A stretch of 38,239 nucleotides of DNA from an uncultured Leptolyngbyaceae cyanobacterium (lineage in GTDB: Bacteria > Cyanobacteriota > Cyanobacteriia > Leptolyngbyales > Leptolyngbyaceae), in assembly GCA_938023035.1 (NCBI GenBank), contig CALIDI010000039.1, positions 1 to 38,239 of the forward strand, read 5' to 3'. Position numbers and translations under genes: made by a program. Shown here in pieces: positions 1,561 through 11,360 of this stretch. Numbering within the stretch: position 1 is the first letter of the stretch; every line of letters starts with the position of its first letter. The notes beneath the pieces are model-generated. The model saw only the letters and a program-made list of their open reading frames with translations, was not told the origin of the DNA and made no database searches.

Positions 1561-2481
1561 TTACCCCCCTGCACTCCCGAAATCATCTTGCGCCCAGCTA
1601 CTTACCACCCGCAAGCCAATATCGTAGAGTCCTCGATCAGGGTTGGCATAGGCCCGAAAGGCCGACCGACAGGTGCGTGGGCCACTATTCCAGGAGCCAC
1701 CGCGGACGACCCGGCGGGCTGTGTCTGCCCCTGCTACCCACACTGAACCATCGGTCGGGGCATTGTCGTAGTTGGGGTGCCAGCCATCAAGACACCACTC
1801 CCGCACATTGCCGTGCATATCGAAGAGGCCAAAGGCATTGGCAACGGCACAGTGGCCAACCACTGTGGTTTCTCGACGGTCAGTGCCCTTTGGCCCGGCC
1901 CCATAGAAGCCATGGCTACAAATCTTGCCCTGATACTCCCAATCGACCCCTGAGTAATTGGCCAAATCAGTTGTGATAGTGGCTCCAAAATGAAACGGGG
2001 TAGTGGTGCCAGCGCGGCAGGCATACTCCCACTCGGCTTCACTGGGTAGGCGATAGGGGCGACCCGTAAAAATCGTTAGGCGATCGCAAAATTCTACTGC
2101 ATCTTGCCATGACACCTGCTCAACTGGGCACTCTGCCTGGTCGCGGTTACTCGGTCGGGGTTCTAGATAGTAATTGACCTTAGGGAGAGCCGCTACGGCT
2201 TCCCACTGGGCCTGGGTAATGGGGAAACGCCCCATCCCAAAGCTGGCAATAAAAACGGTGTGCTGGGGAGATTGGGCCGCCGTCCAACCTTCCTCTGTTG
2301 AGGCTGTTCCCATCACAAAGGTACCCGCTGGGATTGAAACTATCTCCAGAGCGAGGGCATCGGTGAGGGCTTCTCGCCAGCCTGTTACCCATCGGTGGTG
2401 GCGATCGCATACCTGCCCCTGGTCATCGACCGTGACCATATCAAACTCAAACTGGGTTGGCTGGATTCGTGATATCGCCAT
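1561..2481 (-). CDS. SUMF1/formylglycine-generating-enzyme-like C-type-lectin-fold protein, probably non-enzymatic
   Basis: A 306-residue protein. About 40 N-terminal residues precede a SUMF1 (FGE-sulfatase) domain: IPAGTFVMGT, PITQAQWEAV, PVEQVSWQDAVEFC, RLPSEAEWEYACRAG, FDMHGNVREWC, and a C-terminal RGGSWNSGPRTCRSAFR to IGLRVV. Genuine FGE uses two cysteines five residues apart (human C336 and C341, in SYMCHRSYC). Aligned by GGSW, the first is Ser here and only the second position keeps a Cys, so sulfatase-activating chemistry is unlikely. The gene starts 31 bp after the caspase homologue ends, on the same strand, suggesting one transcript. SUMF1-like domains in cyanobacteria often serve as binding modules beside caspase-like proteins and as variable targets of diversity-generating retroelements. 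The ATG start has only a weak upstream Shine-Dalgarno. Confidence 0.88.
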   Translation of the reverse strand: MAISRIQPTQFEFDMVTVDDQGQVCDRHHRWVTGWREALTDALALEIVSIPAGTFVMGTASTEEGWTAAQSPQHTVFIASFGMGRFPITQAQWEAVAALPKVNYYLEPRPSNRDQAECPVEQVSWQDAVEFCDRLTIFTGRPYRLPSEAEWEYACRAGTTTPFHFGATITTDLANYSGVDWEYQGKICSHGFYGAGPKGTDRRETTVVGHCAVANAFGLFDMHGNVREWCLDGWHPNYDNAPTDGSVWVAGADTARRVVRGGSWNSGPRTCRSAFRAYANPDRGLYDIGLRVVSSWAQDDFGSAGG

Positions 2482-2512
2482 ATTCTGCGATGAGATGTCA
2501 CAACTGACCGCA

Positions 2513-4756
2513 TTATCCAGTCACCTGATACAGAAAGCGCAACCCGGCCCAATTGGCTAAATCCAAGGCATAGCTATGATTGGCCGCCAGGGTTTGCAGA
2601 TTTGGACGACTGGCTGCGTGTAAGTCTTGAAGAACCGCCTGGGCTAGCTCTAGGGGATTGGGTAGCGAGGATGTAATGGCACTATTGCCAGAGGCCTTCA
2701 GCAGCGATCGCAGAGTTTCAAAGGTCTGCTGAAACGGCTTGCGGCTACACAGCAAATAGGCTTCGGCAAAGCCAATCGGTTTACGCACCAGCCATTGCAA
2801 CGAAGGGGCATTGGGCAGGTCGTAGGTAGCCCCAGGAGGAATGACGGGCGAAACCGCATCGCCTTCCAGCGTTAAAATCCCCTCTGGAGGTTGCGACCAA
2901 ATCATTAAGTTTCCACCGCTATCAAAATTTAAGAGCAGATAGTAGAGAGGCTCGTCGGCCAGATTTTTTAATCGGTAACATACCTGACTGCCCACCGCGA
3001 TCGCGGGTAACCCATCTGCATTGGTGACACTGTTTGAAGCGCTCGATTTTGCCACTTCATCGGTCTGACCCACACCACTACTGCGTTGCTGTACAACAAC
3101 CGACTCTTGGCCCTGCTGCACAACTAAACGGGCCAGCACAGGTAAGCTCGCCAGACCCTGATTTTCAGCCAGACTTAACAATTTAGCTGCCAGCAAGTTT
3201 TGCAATTTGGGAAGCAGTCGCTTTACCGCGATCTTAACAGCTTCACCCTTTTCTCCAGCGGTGTTTGGCACCACCTCCTGAGCTGGAGAAAACAAACCAT
3301 AACTACTTTGAGTGGTCACCCCCGTGGTCACGCCACTTAAATTACTGGCTGCAATTTGAGCCGGCTGGGTAATCTTGCGAAAGAGATAGTCGCTCGGTTC
3401 TTCGCCAGCAGTTGCCACGGAGATATAGGGAATTCCGGTGAGGGCACTAATGGCATCAACTCGCTCATGGCGCTCCAGTGTATTATCTAGGGCAACGGTC
3501 AAACCGATTCCGCGAGGAACTAAACGAACTTGCTCACGCAGCAGTTGCCCGACTTGGGGCAATACTGCCGAAACCACCTTTGCTTCTGCCGTTAGGCCAG
3601 AGCGATGCAGCAGTTGCACCTGCAAAGTCGCTTCCCGATCAACTCCGACCATGAGCGAATCGGCCTCATACTGTTCCAAAATCGCGGTGGGCAGCCCCCC
3701 TAACCAGAGTTGAACTGTTTTGTTGGCCGTATCCACCGCTGTCACGACCGCATCTGCCACAGGTGTAGACAGATCAGATACGTAGTAGGGCGCTCTATTC
3801 TCCGATCGCCCCGACGTTAAGGGCCGCTCGGATAGTTTCGCCGGTAAAAGTTGGGGTTGCTGTTCCTGGCTGGTGTAGTGCTCAATCTCCTGGCGCACTC
3901 GCCCCATGACAAATTGCAGTGCGACTGGAGGGAGGCTTTGCCATAGGGTCTGCGTTAAGGCTAGCGTAAACAGGCCGGCACTAAACCCCGCCCAACGGGC
4001 TTCAGTGGCTAGGTGTTGAGGGGTGGTTGCTGTCAACAATACCCCTGGAAAGACGGGTAAAGCCTGGTCGGTTGCCAGAGCGGTGACGCGCTGTTGACCC
4101 AGCGATCGCGAATTCAAGAGTTCTTCTCGACTGGCTAGGGCGGATGCACTCATGCGGGCCGGGGCACGAGTGGGGCGCGCCCGCACCCGCAGATTACCCA
4201 CTAAGGATTTGCCAGGGTAGGTATAGCCTGTGTCAAGAATAGTCGTCAGGTTGCTAGTTGGTAGCGATCGCCCCAGTAAACTGAGCGTTTCTAGCAGCAC
4301 ATCTTCAACCACCAGGCCGTCATCAGTCGTAACCACATGATCACTAGTTACGAGAGCAGGTTGAGTTGCCCCATCTGGCAAATGTACCAGACCGCCATAG
4401 CCACTGAAATGAAACACCACCACATCCCCTGCTTGTGCCTGGGCTAGGAGATGCTGCTGATAGGCCGCTGCAATCGCTTGTCGAGTTGCCTGCTGATTCG
4501 TGAGTGTTAGAATGTCTGCCGGTTGAAACCTAAAGCGGTGAATCAATAGCTCCCGCTGCAACTCAACATCCGTCCGACAACCGTACAAGGGCGTATCCTT
4601 ATACTGATCAATGCCAATCAACAACGCTAGCTTTCGCTGAGTCGGTGCTGCTAGCGCTGCATAATAGCTCTGTGCAAACCTGGCTATGCCCACTTCATTC
4701 AAGCCGAGGGCCGCCCAAAATACCCCCGACCGCTGCAAAAAATCCCGCCGCTTCAT
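2513..4756 (-). CDS. Tat-signal caspase-like (peptidase C14/orthocaspase) protein with lost catalytic dyad
   Basis: 747 residues from the chosen ATG; an upstream in-frame start would add 25 residues without obvious signal. The N-terminus MKRRDFLQRSGVFWAALGL fits a twin-arginine (Tat) export signal, favouring this start. A p20 caspase-like domain follows: KLALLIGIDQY (42-52), a Cys/Arg-Asp segment near 60, then VVVFHFSGYGG (112-122) and TTILDTGYTYPG (171-182). In active orthocaspases these read FSGHG and DxC; here the His is Tyr120 and the nucleophile Cys is Gly177, so the protein should be proteolytically dead. A region near residues 600-700 with VCYRLKN, PLYYLLLNFDSGGNLMIW and PPGATYDLP resembles DUF4384. 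The SUMF1-like gene lies 31 bp downstream. A binding, scaffold or sensor role is inferred. Confidence 0.88.
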   Translation of the reverse strand: MKRRDFLQRSGVFWAALGLNEVGIARFAQSYYAALAAPTQRKLALLIGIDQYKDTPLYGCRTDVELQRELLIHRFRFQPADILTLTNQQATRQAIAAAYQQHLLAQAQAGDVVVFHFSGYGGLVHLPDGATQPALVTSDHVVTTDDGLVVEDVLLETLSLLGRSLPTSNLTTILDTGYTYPGKSLVGNLRVRARPTRAPARMSASALASREELLNSRSLGQQRVTALATDQALPVFPGVLLTATTPQHLATEARWAGFSAGLFTLALTQTLWQSLPPVALQFVMGRVRQEIEHYTSQEQQPQLLPAKLSERPLTSGRSENRAPYYVSDLSTPVADAVVTAVDTANKTVQLWLGGLPTAILEQYEADSLMVGVDREATLQVQLLHRSGLTAEAKVVSAVLPQVGQLLREQVRLVPRGIGLTVALDNTLERHERVDAISALTGIPYISVATAGEEPSDYLFRKITQPAQIAASNLSGVTTGVTTQSSYGLFSPAQEVVPNTAGEKGEAVKIAVKRLLPKLQNLLAAKLLSLAENQGLASLPVLARLVVQQGQESVVVQQRSSGVGQTDEVAKSSASNSVTNADGLPAIAVGSQVCYRLKNLADEPLYYLLLNFDSGGNLMIWSQPPEGILTLEGDAVSPVIPPGATYDLPNAPSLQWLVRKPIGFAEAYLLCSRKPFQQTFETLRSLLKASGNSAITSSLPNPLELAQAVLQDLHAASRPNLQTLAANHSYALDLANWAGLRFLYQVTG

Positions 4757-4851
4757 GGCCCCGCTTACCCCGTCGCCTCTAGCTACCAGCGTATCAGGAA
4801 CTCCGCCGTTTGGGTGTTGGCACGGCATCAATTTTATGGGAAAAAATAGCG

Positions 4852-5735: not shown

Positions 5736-7745
5736 GTGGCATCGATTGACTCTATTCTCAGAAAAGCGGCAAACCCGTTTGACCCGGCCAGCTTCAAGCC
5801 GGGTAATTTTTGGCAGGAGCAACCGGGTCGCAATCCAACGGTTGATTCGATTCACGAAGAAGTATTAACGGCGATCGCGACGCTGTTAGATCAGATTAGC
5901 CATGACCACCAGACTCGCACCGTGGTTCTTTTGGGAGATTCTGGTTCTGGTAAGTCGCACCTACTAGGGCGGCTCAAGCAAATGCTGAATCGCCGCGCTT
6001 TTTTTGTTTATGTTGGGCCTTGGGCCGACAACACCTACCTCTGGCGGCACATTCTCCGGCAAACGGTGGATAGTCTGGTACAGGTACCTGCCGGTCAGCA
6101 AGAATCGCAACTGCTCCTCTGGCTCAAAGGTCTTTCGATTTTTCGCAAAAAAAGCTTGTTAGACCGTCTCATGGGCGATCGCAAAGGCTTTATTCGCCAG
6201 CTTCGAGAGACTTATCGGGCAGGGATTTATAACGCCAATGAGTTTTTTGGTGTGCTCTACGACCTGCTGAATCCAGACTTACACTTGACCGCTTGCGACT
6301 GGCTGCGGGGAGATGACCTGGATGAGGAAGCACTGCAATCAATTCGAGTCAAAACCGCGATCAATTCGGAAGATGCGGCCCAAAAAGTCTTAGAAAACTT
6401 TGGCCGAATTGCTGTAGAAACGCAGCCCATTGTTTTGTGCTTTGACAACCTGGATGGGATTCCTCGGCAAGAGGGGTTTATCGACTTGCAAGCTCTGTTT
6501 AATGTGAATTCCACCATCCACAATCAAAAGCTAAAGGGCTTTTTAATTGTCATTAGCCTGATTACAAACACCTGGGTTGAAAACGCAAAGCGCATTCAAC
6601 TTTCCGATAAAGCGAGGGTCGATCAAACGTTGACCCTGCGCCCCATTAACCTGGTGCAGGCAGAGGGGCTGTGGCAAACGCGACTGGCTCCGCTGCACAT
6701 CCAGGCCAATCCACCCCCACCGCCGATGTATCCCTTTGCCAGGGAGATATTAGAGCAATCCTTTCCTGGAGGTAAAGCCCGACCACGCAATGTGCTAGAG
6801 CTAGGTCGGCGGTTGTTTGTGGAATATAAGGCGGGTAAAGCGACCGCCACCGATCCCTATGCCGCTTTTCACCTAATCTGGCTGAAAGAACTGCAAAAAA
6901 ATCAGCAAAAGCTGGTTCGTATCCGTCAATTAGCCTCGCCAGAACTGGCCCAAATGCTGCGGGAGGCATTAACGGCCCTCGGTATGGAAGGGGTGCGATC
7001 GCGCTTTTTACCTAGCCCCAAGTATTTTCTCCATTCCTTCAGCTTTCAACGGCCTGGGGAGGGCGATCGGATTGGCGTCGTCTGGACCGAAGAACCCAAT
7101 GCGACCAGCTTTTTCCACATTATGAAAGCCTGCCAAAAAGCCCTGGATGTCAAGTTGTGTCAGAGCTTAATCCTGATTCGGGCGGAGGCGATGCCCCGGC
7201 AAACCACCAAAGGCTACGCGCTACTTTCTCAGATTTTTAGCCAGCCTCCCCACCGCGCCTTGGTTCCCAGCTTAGACTCGGTGCAACAGTTGGCGACCTA
7301 CTACAACTTGCTCAATGCCGCCCATGCCAGAGATCTAGTGATTGCTGGAAAAACACTCAGTCCAGCAGAGTTGATTGAGCTGGTGCGCGCGGCCCAGGTG
7401 TTCCAAGGGTGTGAGCTACTGCAAGATTTGGCCATTGTACCTACCAAAGCCGAGGCGAAAGCCAAAGTCACCGCTCCCAAGCCCGAGCCTACCATGCCAC
7501 CTGCCGTGGACCGGGAGTCGGTGAGGGGCTTTATTCTCAATTTTGTCAAAGTCAATAGTTTTCTTGGAGTGCAGACCTTAATTCAAAATGGGCTGACCCA
7601 ATACCCCCAAATGACCGCTGCTGAGCTAGAGAAAATTATTGTTAGCCTATGCAAGGAGCGCAAAATTCAACTGCTCGATCCTCACGCGCCCTTTCTAGAG
7701 CAATTGGTTTGCTATGTGCCCGATACCCCATGCTCAAACCATTGA
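5736..7745 (+). CDS. AAA+/ORC-KAP-like P-loop ATPase with C-terminal winged helix
   Basis: 669 residues with a GTG start preceded by AAGG at 5725-5728. Walker A is GDSGSGKS (67-74, Lys73). A Walker B-like strand PIVLCFDNLD ends at Asp240, where canonical members have DE; here it is DN. The order resembles ORC/Cdc6, KAP or STAND-type ATPases. The C-terminal 75 residues, from RESVRGFILNFVK to the end, look like a winged-helix DNA-binding domain. No membrane segment is seen. Its last 16 bases overlap the start of the nuclease-FtsK gene, so the two are almost certainly translationally coupled and act together, presumably as a DNA-loading ATPase and a DNA-pumping nuclease. The exact family is not recognised and the function is inferred. 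Confidence 0.82.
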   Translation: MASIDSILRKAANPFDPASFKPGNFWQEQPGRNPTVDSIHEEVLTAIATLLDQISHDHQTRTVVLLGDSGSGKSHLLGRLKQMLNRRAFFVYVGPWADNTYLWRHILRQTVDSLVQVPAGQQESQLLLWLKGLSIFRKKSLLDRLMGDRKGFIRQLRETYRAGIYNANEFFGVLYDLLNPDLHLTACDWLRGDDLDEEALQSIRVKTAINSEDAAQKVLENFGRIAVETQPIVLCFDNLDGIPRQEGFIDLQALFNVNSTIHNQKLKGFLIVISLITNTWVENAKRIQLSDKARVDQTLTLRPINLVQAEGLWQTRLAPLHIQANPPPPPMYPFAREILEQSFPGGKARPRNVLELGRRLFVEYKAGKATATDPYAAFHLIWLKELQKNQQKLVRIRQLASPELAQMLREALTALGMEGVRSRFLPSPKYFLHSFSFQRPGEGDRIGVVWTEEPNATSFFHIMKACQKALDVKLCQSLILIRAEAMPRQTTKGYALLSQIFSQPPHRALVPSLDSVQQLATYYNLLNAAHARDLVIAGKTLSPAELIELVRAAQVFQGCELLQDLAIVPTKAEAKAKVTAPKPEPTMPPAVDRESVRGFILNFVKVNSFLGVQTLIQNGLTQYPQMTAAELEKIIVSLCKERKIQLLDPHAPFLEQLVCYVPDTPCSNH

Positions 7746-9760
7746 CGGTTACCCAGATTCGCCTTGCGTTTGAATGTCCCCGGTTATTCTACTTAGGGGA
7801 ACGGTTTCAGACTCAAACGCTGTTTGTGCCTAAAGGAGCAGCGCTAGGGCTGGGCAAAGCGTTTCATGACTTAGCGGCGGCGTTTGTTCCCCTGATGCAA
7901 CAGGATGGGCATCTGCGTGCCTTGTTGGCAGCCGAGGCTAACCCGCTAGAGTCAGCAGCGATCGCGCAGGCAATGCAACAACTGTTCTACGAGCAGGTAT
8001 TTTATCCCTATTTGCAGCAGGCGATCGCCCAAAAACCAGCCATGGCCCCTGCCCTACTGCATCTGTGGCAGGGCATCTGCGATCTGATCCAACGCTGGGC
8101 GCAATTGTTGCTGACCAATCGTCGGTATTGCCCAGCCGATGAGTTAGTGCAGAAGACCTTTCTCGCCCAAGAAATGGCCGTAGAGCATTGCTTTACCCTG
8201 GCCAATGGTACTCAGCAACCGGTAAAGGGCCGCTTCGATAGTTTGGTTTATGACTTTGAGCGGCATCGGCTCTGTGTGGTGGAATACAAAACCTACCAGA
8301 TGCAAGATCCTGCGGCTCAAGTCGCCCAAGTGGCCCTCTATGGTTACCTGCTCCATCAACGGGTGGGGGTACCGATTGACTCTGTGGTGTATAGTGTTTT
8401 GCCCGATTGGAAAGAGCAAACCTTTACCTGGCAACAACTCACCGATGCCATTCATCACCTCATCCCCATCTGGTTAGGACGCATGCAGCAATGGCTTACC
8501 TGGGAGCCTTCCCAGCCAGACTCCCCGCCAGCAACGACACAACCAGAGTTACTCTGCCCCATGTGCCCTCAGTATGAGCGCTGTCAGACCTTCTTTCAGA
8601 GTGCGGCCCCGGCTCCCCTAAGGCTGGATGAACAAACGTCTGCCCGTCTGCCGCGCCCAACTCCATCGCCTGCACCACCCCCCAAAGCAACTGTTACGGC
8701 TGCGACCAACGCCGATCAGATGGGGGCTAATCTGGTGCAAATTTTGCAATCCTTTGGGGTGGAAGTAAGTTACATCGGTGCAGCGGTTGGCCCAGCCTTT
8801 GTCCGAGTGCGGTTAAAGCCGCAGCCAGGAGTGAAGGTGAGTTCAATTTTGCGGTTAGCCGATGACCTGCGAGTGCAATTGGGTTTACCTGGGCTACCCC
8901 TGATTGCCCCCCAGGCCGGCCACGTTAGTGTTGATTTGCCACGTACCCAGCGTCAAACCGCCCGCTTTGAGCAATATATCCAGACTACTACTGCCACTGC
9001 TACCGCTACTGACCCGGTGAAAATTGCAATTGGGGTGGATTTAGAGGGCAAGCTGGTGGAGGCTGATTTGTCAGACCCAAACACCTGCCATTTCTTGATC
9101 GGCGGTACAACGGGGAGTGGCAAAAGTGAGTTTTTGCGATCGCTGCTCCTGAGTTTGATTGTGCGCCATAGCCCTGACCACCTCCGCATTGCCCTGGTAG
9201 ACCCCAAGCGGGTCACCTTCCCAGAGTTTGAACAAATGCCCTGGCTATTGGCCCCCGTCGCCAAAGAGAGCGATCGCGCCATTCAGCTTATGGAAAGTCT
9301 CGTGCAACTGATGGAAAGCCGCTACCAGACCTTTGAACGGTTTGGTTGCAACGATCTGCGTAGCTATAACCAGCGGCAACCCGACGCAGTCATGTATCGC
9401 CTAGTTTGCATCTTTGATGAATATGCCGACTTCATGGCCGAAAAAGAAATCCGCAATGCTCTAGAAACCAGCATTAAGCGGCTGGGGGCAATGGCCCGTG
9501 CAGCGGGTATTCATCTCATCATTGCCACCCAACGCCCAGAGGCCAGAGTCATTACTCCTCTGATTCGCTCAAACCTGCCGGGGCGTATTGCTCTAAAAAC
9601 AGCCAGTGCCGCTGATTCAATGATTATCCTAGGGGGTAAAGAAACAGCGGCAGTTGCCCTCTTGGGCAAAGGTGATTTGCTTTATCAACGGGGGGCCGAC
9701 CTGCTGCGGTTGCAAAGCCTGTTTGCGGGTAAAATTCAACCCCCCTGGCCACGGCAATAA
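7730..9760 (+). CDS. PD-(D/E)XK iron-sulfur nuclease fused to FtsK/SpoIIIE-type DNA translocase
   Basis: 676 residues from the ATG chosen because MLKPLTVTQIRLAFECP begins the nuclease fold; a further upstream start would overlap the previous gene by 97 nt. Residues 1 to about 290 are a RecB/AddB/Cas4-type nuclease: His46 (AFHD), Asp170 (KGRFDSLVY), Glu185-x-Lys187 (VVEYKTYQ), then a helix VALYGYL. Cys16 plus C276-x2-C279-x5-C285 match the AddB 4Fe-4S pattern. A Pro-rich linker (about 290-325) leads to an FtsK alpha-like domain (NLVQILQSFGVEV to VDLPR) and the FtsK motor: Walker A GGTTGSGKS (458-466), LRIALVDPKR, Walker B CIFDEYADF, HLIIATQRPEA. The N-terminal membrane domain and C-terminal gamma domain of true FtsK are absent. 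All catalytic residues look intact, implying an active, translocating DNA nuclease. Confidence 0.9.
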   Translation: MLKPLTVTQIRLAFECPRLFYLGERFQTQTLFVPKGAALGLGKAFHDLAAAFVPLMQQDGHLRALLAAEANPLESAAIAQAMQQLFYEQVFYPYLQQAIAQKPAMAPALLHLWQGICDLIQRWAQLLLTNRRYCPADELVQKTFLAQEMAVEHCFTLANGTQQPVKGRFDSLVYDFERHRLCVVEYKTYQMQDPAAQVAQVALYGYLLHQRVGVPIDSVVYSVLPDWKEQTFTWQQLTDAIHHLIPIWLGRMQQWLTWEPSQPDSPPATTQPELLCPMCPQYERCQTFFQSAAPAPLRLDEQTSARLPRPTPSPAPPPKATVTAATNADQMGANLVQILQSFGVEVSYIGAAVGPAFVRVRLKPQPGVKVSSILRLADDLRVQLGLPGLPLIAPQAGHVSVDLPRTQRQTARFEQYIQTTTATATATDPVKIAIGVDLEGKLVEADLSDPNTCHFLIGGTTGSGKSEFLRSLLLSLIVRHSPDHLRIALVDPKRVTFPEFEQMPWLLAPVAKESDRAIQLMESLVQLMESRYQTFERFGCNDLRSYNQRQPDAVMYRLVCIFDEYADFMAEKEIRNALETSIKRLGAMARAAGIHLIIATQRPEARVITPLIRSNLPGRIALKTASAADSMIILGGKETAAVALLGKGDLLYQRGADLLRLQSLFAGKIQPPWPRQ

Positions 9761-10349: not shown

Positions 10350-11177
10350 TTACAGCCGCGAAATGAAAAACAGACAGCCACCAATCGCCTGGGGAATGCC
10401 AGCTTCAATTTGCTCAGGAGTATAGGCGATCGCCTCTTGCAACGCACTCAACTCAATCTGGTCATGGCGTTGCAGCCGGTAGAGCGCTTCATCCAACTGG
10501 TCGCGGCTAAAACTATGGCGTAGCTTCTCCCGCAGGTAAAAGATTGGCAAATAGTTTTCGGTTCCCAATTCATGATCTAGGCGGGTGATAAGCGCCAATA
10601 GATCTTCATCGGAGGGGGTTCCCAAAGGCGGCGGTGCCGGTGTCAGGGGCACGCTTGATGGGGTTGGAGTGGCTGTCAGTTCCAGAGGCTTGCGCAAAAA
10701 TCGCAGGTAATTGTTCAACAGACTCAGGCTAATGGTTGGGGTACCTGTCGGGTTACAGTCGTCTCGCAGGTAGAGCTTGCCCCGATCAGTGAGCCATACT
10801 TCGCGGATTTTTTCACTGGTCGCCTTAATCAAACCGCGATCGCGCAACCCCCTAAGAGTCGGCTGCAATTCGTCTCCCAGGCTTTTTAGCCCAGCGATTG
10901 TACTACTACCCTGCCGACAAGTCTGCAAAATTCTTAGTTCTGCCTCGGTGACGGGTAATTCCACATCTTTGAGACGCAGCAGGGCTTTGCCCGGTGGCTC
11001 AATGCGAAAGCGATGAATCTCAGTGTTATAAGCCACGAGTTCACGAGCGGCCAGCTCTCGACACAGTTTCTCGCGATCGCCAGCCTTCGATGGGGTCTTC
11101 ATCTCAGCCAACGCCATCCGATAGCTCGGGGGATTGCCCAGAAGCTTGAGCACAAACTTAAGTTCACTGGCTTTCAT
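10350..11177 (-). CDS. multi-winged-helix protein of unknown function
   Basis: 275 residues from ATG (MKASELKF); a GTG nine bases further upstream, at 11186, is possible and has a slightly better GGATAGG before it. Residues 1-70 and 70-145 look like two consecutive winged-helix units, the second with LRGLRDRGLIKAT and VWLTDRGKLYL, typical of a wing and recognition region. A Pro/Thr-rich linker (TPTPSSVPLTPAPPP) follows, then a third helical unit rich in charged residues (YLPIFYLREKLRH, DQLDEALYRLQRHDQIEL). No enzymatic motif is visible. It converges on the AAA/nuclease-FtsK pair across about 590 bp, so a shared role is possible but unproven. It is a good candidate for a DNA-binding regulator or adaptor. 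Confidence 0.75.
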   Translation of the reverse strand: MKASELKFVLKLLGNPPSYRMALAEMKTPSKAGDREKLCRELAARELVAYNTEIHRFRIEPPGKALLRLKDVELPVTEAELRILQTCRQGSSTIAGLKSLGDELQPTLRGLRDRGLIKATSEKIREVWLTDRGKLYLRDDCNPTGTPTISLSLLNNYLRFLRKPLELTATPTPSSVPLTPAPPPLGTPSDEDLLALITRLDHELGTENYLPIFYLREKLRHSFSRDQLDEALYRLQRHDQIELSALQEAIAYTPEQIEAGIPQAIGGCLFFISRL

Positions 11178-11360
11178 AGAGTGCACTGACCTATCCAGTT
11201 TTTGAGAAGAAATTGGGGAACGCTGAAACCCTCTGCCTACTGTACACTGACAGTGATTTGTTTAAATCGTTACAGGCCACCGCTAAATTAGTCGATAGGC
11301 TCTGGCTAAGAGCTTGAAAGCACAACCGACTCTTTGACACTGTAGGAATAAAATCTAGCT

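What the first reader, a model, noticed from the sequence alone, without database searches (positions are those of the whole stretch)
5736..9760. Coupled AAA ATPase and Fe-S nuclease-FtsK motor fusion: candidate new DNA-processing or defence system
Sequence: the second protein joins an intact RecB/AddB-type nuclease (His46, Asp170, Glu185-x-Lys187, and Cys16 with C276-x2-C279-x5-C285) to an FtsK alpha and motor region without membrane or gamma domains. The gene overlaps an ORC/KAP-like AAA ATPase gene by 16 nt. Knowledge: FtsK and HerA motors are ring translocases, and nuclease-motor pairs (HerA-NurA, AddAB) process DNA ends. Inference: the AAA protein recognises or loads DNA and the fusion pumps and cuts it, for invader degradation, repair or plasmid control. 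It may instead be a conserved cyanobacterial housekeeping module.
Basis: partly seen in the sequence, partly recalled or inferred. Interest (0 to 1): 0.78.

Follow-up and report, generated by a model that had tools for sequence, protein, structure and literature searches.

The report
Cyanobacterial DNA-pumping, DNA-cutting operon with swappable sensor
A three-gene cyanobacterial system joins a ring-type DNA motor to a nuclease and pairs it with DNA-binding partners that related species seem to exchange, which points to defence against invading DNA, though nothing has been tested at the bench.

Summary
The two genes are real and the residues named are there. Most relatives of C (74 of 91) carry an extra N-terminal exonuclease-type domain, absent in the window. 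The layout fits a class already predicted on paper, the Orc/Cdc6 'HerA/FtsK capture systems' (Rakesh et al. 2024): known kind, untested. New here: in ten close pairs of loci picked for discordance, a sharply divergent block covers much or all of B and, in nine, the end of A, while C stays similar. This looks like exchange of a recognition cassette, as with HsdS of type I restriction. Best reading: an accessory anti-invader machine in which A and B recognise DNA and C pumps and cuts it. Against: no enrichment of defence families nearby, vertical inheritance at one site in many Nostocales, no bench data. A phylum-wide link to phosphorothioation genes is confounded by ancestry and not seen in the window's family.

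The parts
5736..7745 (+). Gene B: ORC/Cdc6-like AAA protein, 669 aa
   Evidence: Pfam AAA_16; AF2 model pLDDT 89.2, pTM 0.90; best folds ORC/Cdc6, Z 14-15
5853..6845 (+). B, AAA core, residues about 40-370; Walker A GDSGSGKS, Walker B FDNLD without the usual Glu
   Evidence: Lys73 invariant in the 92 rows; the position after the Walker B Asp is N, Q or H in 92 of 92
6918..7415 (+). B, inserted alpha/beta domain, residues about 395-560; REase-like order of helices and strands, no catalytic motif seen
   Evidence: secondary structure of the AF2 model; column composition; no Pfam match to a nuclease; identification inferred
7512..7715 (+). B, C-terminal winged-helix-like unit, residues about 593-660
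   Evidence: AF2 model; alignment to Cdc6 7jgr_G reaches model residue 665, at rmsd 14.7 over both domains
7730..9760 (+). Gene C: PD-(D/E)XK nuclease - FtsK alpha - FtsK motor fusion, 676 aa, no exonuclease domain in this copy
7742..8587 (+). C, RecB/AddB-type PD-(D/E)XK nuclease, residues 5-286, with Cys16, 276, 279, 285
   Evidence: Pfam PDDEXK_1; conservation
8684..8941 (+). C, FtsK alpha domain, residues 319-404
   Evidence: Pfam FtsK_alpha 48 bits, cut-off 22.9
8981..9724 (+). C, FtsK/SpoIIIE motor, residues 418 to about 665; Walker A GTTGSGKS at 459-466, Walker B IFDE
   Evidence: Pfam; motif positions; nearest solved structure by sequence FtsK 2iuu, E 2.8e-50
7730..7745 (+). 16-nt overlap of genes B and C
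10350..11186 (-). Gene A: third component, 278 aa, three winged-helix units; in most relatives directly upstream of B, here downstream and inverted
   Evidence: cluster 2 (71 of 90 loci); co-occurrence; AF2 model pLDDT 89.1, pTM 0.58; winged-helix matches

Best explanation
A, B and C form an accessory anti-invader DNA-degrading machine of the Orc/Cdc6 HerA/FtsK-capture type. Shown by sequence and model: A has three winged-helix units, B is an ORC/Cdc6-like AAA protein, C joins a conserved RecB/AddB-type nuclease with four invariant cysteines to an FtsK alpha and motor region, and the three genes travel together. Inferred: A and B recognise a feature of the target DNA, or a phage-made signal, and load or switch on a ring of C; C then pumps double-stranded DNA while its nuclease, in most species helped by a 3'-5' exonuclease, cuts and trims it. 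The end of A and much or all of B act as an exchangeable recognition cassette; C is the constant effector.
For: A, B and C match together in 40 of 386 genomes, Fisher p 1.7e-43 for A with C (not corrected for ancestry). They are consecutive in 17 of 18 closed or nearly closed genomes chosen because they have C. Nuclease residues are conserved; the one degenerate fused nuclease (L115) has an intact stand-alone copy in the same gene cluster. Cassette exchange: in ten pairs of close loci picked for discordance, a block of 1.3-2.6 kb at 61-78% nt identity, in nine pairs starting in the last 39-141 codons of A and in one inside B, ending within B, just after B or in the first codons of C, flanked by 81-97% on the A side and 87-96% on the C side; log-likelihood ratio 87-426 against at most 13 in 20 shuffles of each pair. 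Two Brasilonema C proteins 95% identical have B proteins 48% identical. B tracks IleS poorly (Mantel r 0.48, 18 loci), C closely (r 0.91, 18 loci), A in between (r 0.77, 13 loci). Patchy distribution with decayed or interrupted copies and one copy on a conjugative plasmid. The published prediction for this class is anti-invader (PMC10853773).
Against: No experiment. Neighbouring genes are not enriched in PADLOC families: 43 families among 134 neighbours, 51 among 144 control proteins. In many Nostocales the operon lies at one inherited site near ileS and a parA gene, and C follows IleS, as expected of a resident gene. The six close pairs picked as concordant show no strong block in B (log-likelihood ratio 7-52). 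Exchange of B could reflect partner co-adaptation rather than target choice. No phage-borne form was found: 0 of 207 matching phage records cover 80% or more of C; the 80 kept of 270 viral-contig matches begin at residue 248 or later of C and cover the motor, not the nuclease.
Confidence: 0.6

Rival explanations
1. A lineage-specific DNA end-processing or repair machine, working like HerA-NurA or AddAB: the motor pumps duplex ends and the nuclease and exonuclease resect them.
For: The nuclease is of the AddB/RecB kind; exonuclease motifs are found in 71 of the 74 copies with the N-terminal extension; vertical inheritance beside ileS in a set of Nostocales loci.
Against: Not found in most cyanobacterial genomes searched and decayed in several; block exchange of B is not expected of a general repair enzyme.
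Confidence: 0.17
2. A chromosome or plasmid partition and dimer-resolution module, with the motor acting like FtsK and a nearby ParA as partner.
For: By sequence the alpha and motor region is closest to cellular FtsK among solved structures; a ParA-family gene, of two kinds, lies in 43 of 90 loci, often downstream.
Against: ParA is also present where C is lost or only a remnant (L108-L112); C lacks gamma and membrane domains and carries a nuclease, with an exonuclease-type domain in most copies.
Confidence: 0.08
3. The missing restriction partner of cyanobacterial Dnd phosphorothioation: A-B-C cuts DNA lacking the mark, in place of DndFGH.
For: dndC over the cut-off in 37 of 40 A-B-C genomes against 56 of 346 others. 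A 2021 survey reports dnd genes enriched but the dndFGH cluster absent in Nostocales (PMC8569181, passages); I did not search for dndFGH myself.
Against: Ancestry explains much of it: dndC is in 86 of 89 genomes of family f28. In the window's family 1 of 7 genomes with C and 2 of 35 without have dndC; the window's own genome has none. Family f22: 8 of 10 against 1 of 4. Pooled over these two families p 0.135.
Confidence: 0.1

Closest known systems
Orc/Cdc6-coupled 'HerA/FtsK capture systems' (Rakesh, Aravind and Krishnan 2024, PMC10853773; abstract, passages and sections 19, 22, 26 seen)
   Same: Orc/Cdc6 ATPase with an extra domain before a C-terminal winged helix, nuclease, HerA/FtsK motor with FtsK alpha, further gene with several winged helices, in some a 3'-5' exonuclease fused to the motor
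   Different: The word cyanobacteria does not occur in the main text. A four-cysteine RecB-type nuclease fused to the motor and exchange of the ORC-like gene are not described in the parts I saw. I could not tell whether this nuclease is one of their two REase families. Figures and supplement not seen
DndFGH / SspFGH phosphorothioate restriction modules
   Same: The alpha and motor region of C matches the C-terminal part of SspH, 217 bits; three-gene logic of ATPase, winged-helix protein and nuclease-motor
   Different: C lacks the long N-terminal part: its match covers only positions 1406-1736 of the 1766-position SspH model; the window genome has no dndC match
HerA-NurA
   Same: FtsK/HerA-class motor with a nuclease
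   Different: Nuclease is of PDDEXK_1 type, fused, with four conserved Cys; ORC-like and winged-helix partners
Type I restriction specificity subunit HsdS (recalled, no call)
   Same: Recognition gene exchanged as a block between conserved neighbours
   Different: No relation claimed; B is an ORC-like AAA protein

Membership tests
Orc/Cdc6 HerA/FtsK capture system (PMC10853773) | Orc/Cdc6-family AAA ATPase | tested here: met
   AF2 model of B aligns to ORC/Cdc6 chains at Z 14-15
Orc/Cdc6 HerA/FtsK capture system (PMC10853773) | Inactive REase inserted between AAA core and C-terminal winged helix | tested here: inconclusive
   Model shows helix-strand-strand-strand-helix-strand at 401-481 without a D...ExK motif, but Pfam and profile comparison with the C nuclease give no match, and the domain was not folded and searched alone
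Orc/Cdc6 HerA/FtsK capture system (PMC10853773) | C-terminal winged helix on the Orc/Cdc6 protein | tested here: inconclusive
   Helix-helix-helix-strand-strand at 593-660 in the model; some ORC/Cdc6 alignments reach residue 665 but at rmsd 14-16 over both domains
Orc/Cdc6 HerA/FtsK capture system (PMC10853773) | Active REase domain | tested here: met
   PDDEXK_1 with conserved catalytic residues; activity itself untested, and which of the paper's two REase families it would be is not known
Orc/Cdc6 HerA/FtsK capture system (PMC10853773) | HerA/FtsK motor, one set with FtsK alpha | tested here: met
   Pfam FtsK_alpha and FtsK_SpoIIIE over cut-off
Orc/Cdc6 HerA/FtsK capture system (PMC10853773) | Further gene with 2-4 winged helices (in a subset of operons, not defining) | tested here: met
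   A: three winged-helix units in the model, MarR-like and kleisin/ORC-like matches; relation to DndG itself not shown
Orc/Cdc6 HerA/FtsK capture system (PMC10853773) | 3'-5' exonuclease fused to the motor (in some, not defining) | tested here: not met
   Absent in the window protein. 74 of 91 homologues have an N-terminal extension of at least 150 residues, exonuclease motifs found in 71 of them; Pfam DNA_pol_A_exo1 in both scanned copies, L024 and L089
DndFGH / SspFGH | Large DndH/SspH with multi-domain N-terminal part | tested here: not met
   C is 676 aa; only residues 328-651 match SspH
HerA-NurA | NurA nuclease | tested here: not met
   No NurA among Pfam hits of C up to E 1; PDDEXK_1 instead
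Cellular FtsK | N-terminal membrane segments and C-terminal gamma domain | tested here: not met
AddAB/RecBCD | SF1 helicase motor | tested here: not met
   Motor is FtsK/SpoIIIE; no bacterial SF1 helicase family among Pfam hits of C up to E 1
Iron-sulfur nuclease (AddB/Cas4/Dna2-like) | Bound 4Fe-4S cluster | not testable with these tools
   Four cysteines in 91 of 91; cluster not shown

The most novel reading that the evidence does not exclude
An immune machine whose specificity is changed by exchanging an ORC-like AAA subunit together with the tail of its winged-helix partner, while the ring motor-nuclease stays constant: an HsdS-like switch built on the origin-recognition fold, with no modification enzyme in its conserved operon.
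Probability: 0.35. Interest if true: 0.82.

Novelty: new member of a known kind. Interest (0 to 1): 0.62.

Why it matters
The class was predicted from sequence alone, and my searches (listings of open-licence papers only) showed no experimental report of it. This operon is compact, three genes, and occurs in named strains. The exchange blocks show which part probably carries the specificity, so the prediction becomes testable by cassette swaps. If right, the ORC fold joins the exchangeable recognition subunits, and cyanobacteria gain a concrete anti-invader candidate.

Tried and rejected
Defence-island test: PADLOC scan of up to four genes either side of A-B-C in 18 genomes (134 proteins under 1,500 aa) against 144 proteins from one region elsewhere on the same contig of each, E up to 1e-15: 43 against 51 families, no enrichment. 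The output counts families, not proteins, and lists the first 25 only, so the test is coarse.

Phosphorothioation link: strong phylum-wide, not seen within the window's family, so kept only as a rival.

ParA as a fourth component: rejected, since it persists where C is gone or a remnant (L108-L112).

Spread outside cyanobacteria: all 80 kept loci carry cyanobacterial titles, but 62 further matches of 142 were not shown; plasmids gave one record covering at least 80%. Other phyla were not searched as whole genomes.

Foldseek with A gave no match at E 0.001 or better; winged helices were read from the model's secondary structure and VIA-align (best Z 8.9, most below 8, so modest). No DndG, SspB or FokI chain was listed there. 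The B profile found nothing in the PDB by sequence up to E 0.1. Profile comparison of the B insert with the C nuclease, and of the winged-helix units of A and B with each other, gave nothing.

(sliding identity) had a coding slip that misplaced gene labels for some pairs; one search is the corrected run, and block positions come only from it. The 16 pairs were picked by hand: ten discordant, all of which show the block, and six concordant, none of which shows a strong one in B (two have mild blocks reaching from B into C: 88% against 94%, and 96% against 99%). So 10 of 16 is not a frequency. Across all pairs of 75 loci one search gives it: of 28 pairs with C distance 0.05-0.10, 46% have B distance over 0.3; of 26 pairs at 0.10-0.15, 62%. 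Pairs share species; I estimate about seven separate events. L017 and L101 (duplicates) were dropped, and loci without a full-length B were not.

Searches for print: searches listed, by title and start of abstract, no report of exchange in such a system and none of a cyanobacterial FtsK-nuclease system; subscription journals are mostly not held, and I opened only PMC10853773, PMC12839542 and PMC8569181.

I also recounted dndC and measured how far the blocks reach into A.
Full report
Observation. The two open frames are as described. B runs 5736-7745 and C 7730-9760, overlapping by 16 nt. C is a PD-(D/E)XK nuclease joined to an FtsK alpha and motor region, B an AAA protein. C lacks a gamma domain and any membrane-helix-like stretch. 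Against their same-genus relatives the three genes have dN/dS of 0.06-0.13 (dS partly saturated).

Clustering the neighbourhoods of 90 loci, some short and a few duplicated, showed a gene of about 280 aa in 71 of them, usually just upstream of B. Its window homologue is 10350-11186 on the minus strand, downstream of C and inverted (gene A). In the same genus (G001) A is on another contig than B and C. In 17 of 18 closed or nearly closed genomes chosen because they have C, A, B and C are consecutive; in the other (G103) A and B lie elsewhere on the chromosome.

Distribution. Over the same 386 cyanobacterial genomes, C matched in 43 (E 1e-60), B in 47 (1e-25) and A in 47 (1e-6); all three in 40. 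Fisher p is 1.7e-43 for A with C and 1.3e-50 for A with B, without correction for ancestry. The 40 include copies of C that look broken or partial: G348 (interrupted), G363 and G428 (part only). Of the three C-only genomes, two (G079, G094) gave only a 3'-end match and one (G141) only a motor at 39% identity. Four genomes have A and B without C, three B alone, three A alone (two of these short with a stop). In G244 the exonuclease part of C survives as a remnant. In the window's family A occurs in 6 and C in 7 of 42 genomes, one of the seven broken. All 80 loci kept from the scan of bacterial and archaeal genomes carry cyanobacterial titles; 62 further matches were not shown. One full operon lies on a conjugative plasmid of Pseudanabaena PCC 7367.

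Anatomy. Of 91 C homologues, 74 have at least 150 extra N-terminal residues; in the two copies scanned, L024 and L089, this is a DNA_pol_A_exo1 exonuclease domain, and a pattern search found the three DEDDy motifs (recalled) in 71 of the 74. The window copy and 16 others lack the extension. One copy (L115) has a degenerate nuclease in C, an added stretch that looks like a protein kinase (my reading of the sequence), and in the same cluster an intact stand-alone nuclease gene: the activity seems to be needed. A models as three winged-helix units (pLDDT 89.1, pTM 0.58). B models well (pLDDT 89.2, pTM 0.90) and resembles ORC/Cdc6 (Z 14-15), with an extra alpha/beta domain before a last winged-helix-like unit. 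That extra domain has the helix and strand order of a restriction-endonuclease fold and no catalytic motif, but no tool confirmed the identity. B's Walker B motif lacks the usual glutamate in 92 of 92 rows, so its ATP turnover may be weak.

The exchange of B. dN/dS pairs first showed it: between two Brasilonema loci (L027, L053) C differs by dS 0.25 but B by 0.90. Over close pairs B is often about half identical where C is over 90% identical. A two-breakpoint test on nucleotide alignments was run on 16 hand-picked pairs. All ten picked as discordant show a block of 1.3-2.6 kb with 61-78% identity, flanked by 81-97% on the A side and 87-96% on the C side. In seven the block takes in the last 39-64 codons of A, in two the last 137-141, and in one (L084-L071) it starts inside B. 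It ends inside B (codons 420-447, about 600, or 640-680), between B and C, or in the first codons of C. The six pairs picked as concordant show no strong block in B. At C distance 0.05-0.10, 46% of 28 pairs have B distance above 0.3. Across loci B follows IleS poorly and C closely. I read this as homologous exchange of a recognition cassette between conserved arms. The pattern is shown; its purpose is inferred. The window and its genus mate show no such discordance: A, B and C are all 69-72% identical.

Mechanism. Established knowledge (recalled): FtsK motors form hexameric rings that pump duplex DNA; ORC/Cdc6 proteins bind DNA and load rings; AddB/Cas4/Dna2-type nucleases with four cysteines hold an iron-sulfur cluster. 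Inference: A and B choose the target and load or trigger C; C pumps and cuts. What separates self from foreign is unknown. No modification gene was among the commonly conserved neighbours. A link with Dnd phosphorothioation is striking phylum-wide (37 of 40 against 56 of 346), but dndC is in 86 of 89 genomes of family f28, and in the window's family 1 of 7 genomes with C has it against 2 of 35 without. I keep it as a rival at 0.10.

Known or new. Rakesh et al. 2024 (PMC10853773; abstract, passages and sections 19, 22, 26 seen) predicted this class, including FtsK alpha, the several-winged-helix gene and the 3'-5' exonuclease fusion, and proposed an anti-invader role. Of seven features tested, four are met, two are inconclusive (inactive REase, last winged helix) and one that the paper gives as optional is absent in this copy. 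I therefore file it as a member of a known, untested kind. Not in the parts of that paper I saw: cyanobacteria, a four-cysteine nuclease fused to the motor, or exchange of the ORC-like gene; its figures and supplement were not available to me. The 2026 BREX paper (PMC12839542, passages only) describes a related but different composite.

Against the reading. Neighbours are not enriched in defence families. In many Nostocales the locus is inherited at one site. Phage records and the kept viral-contig matches carry a motor relative without the nuclease. No experiment supports any step.

Noticed in passing
   Followed up: partly
L104, L106, L113, L114: A-B-B modules: one A gene followed by two B paralogues without a C of their own (in L113 an A-B-C operon lies next to it).
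   Followed up: partly
L110:9356-11523 and similar genes in other loci near A-B-C: A ParA-like protein with an N-terminal restriction-endonuclease-like match (HSDR_N_2, below cut-off) beside a ParB_N protein; ParB-like and long ParA genes recur near the operon. Possibly another conflict system.
   Followed up: partly
family of G077 (89 genomes); loci L236-L249: dndC is nearly universal in this family (86 of 89); by my reading of the sequences, dndD-, dndB- and dndE-like genes lie beside it in several loci. dndFGH was not searched for.
   Followed up: partly
window 1561-4831, minus strand: An FGE-sulfatase-domain protein next to a caspase-domain protein, upstream of the operon beyond rph.
   Followed up: no
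L115:10508-13873; L089:8780-12016: C homologue with a kinase-like stretch (my reading) between exonuclease and a degenerate nuclease domain; C of L089 has an N-terminal DUF4145 domain.
   Followed up: partly
L109, L110, L111: B is present as a full-length open frame where no A or C was found, so it may have a use of its own or the decay is recent.
   Followed up: no
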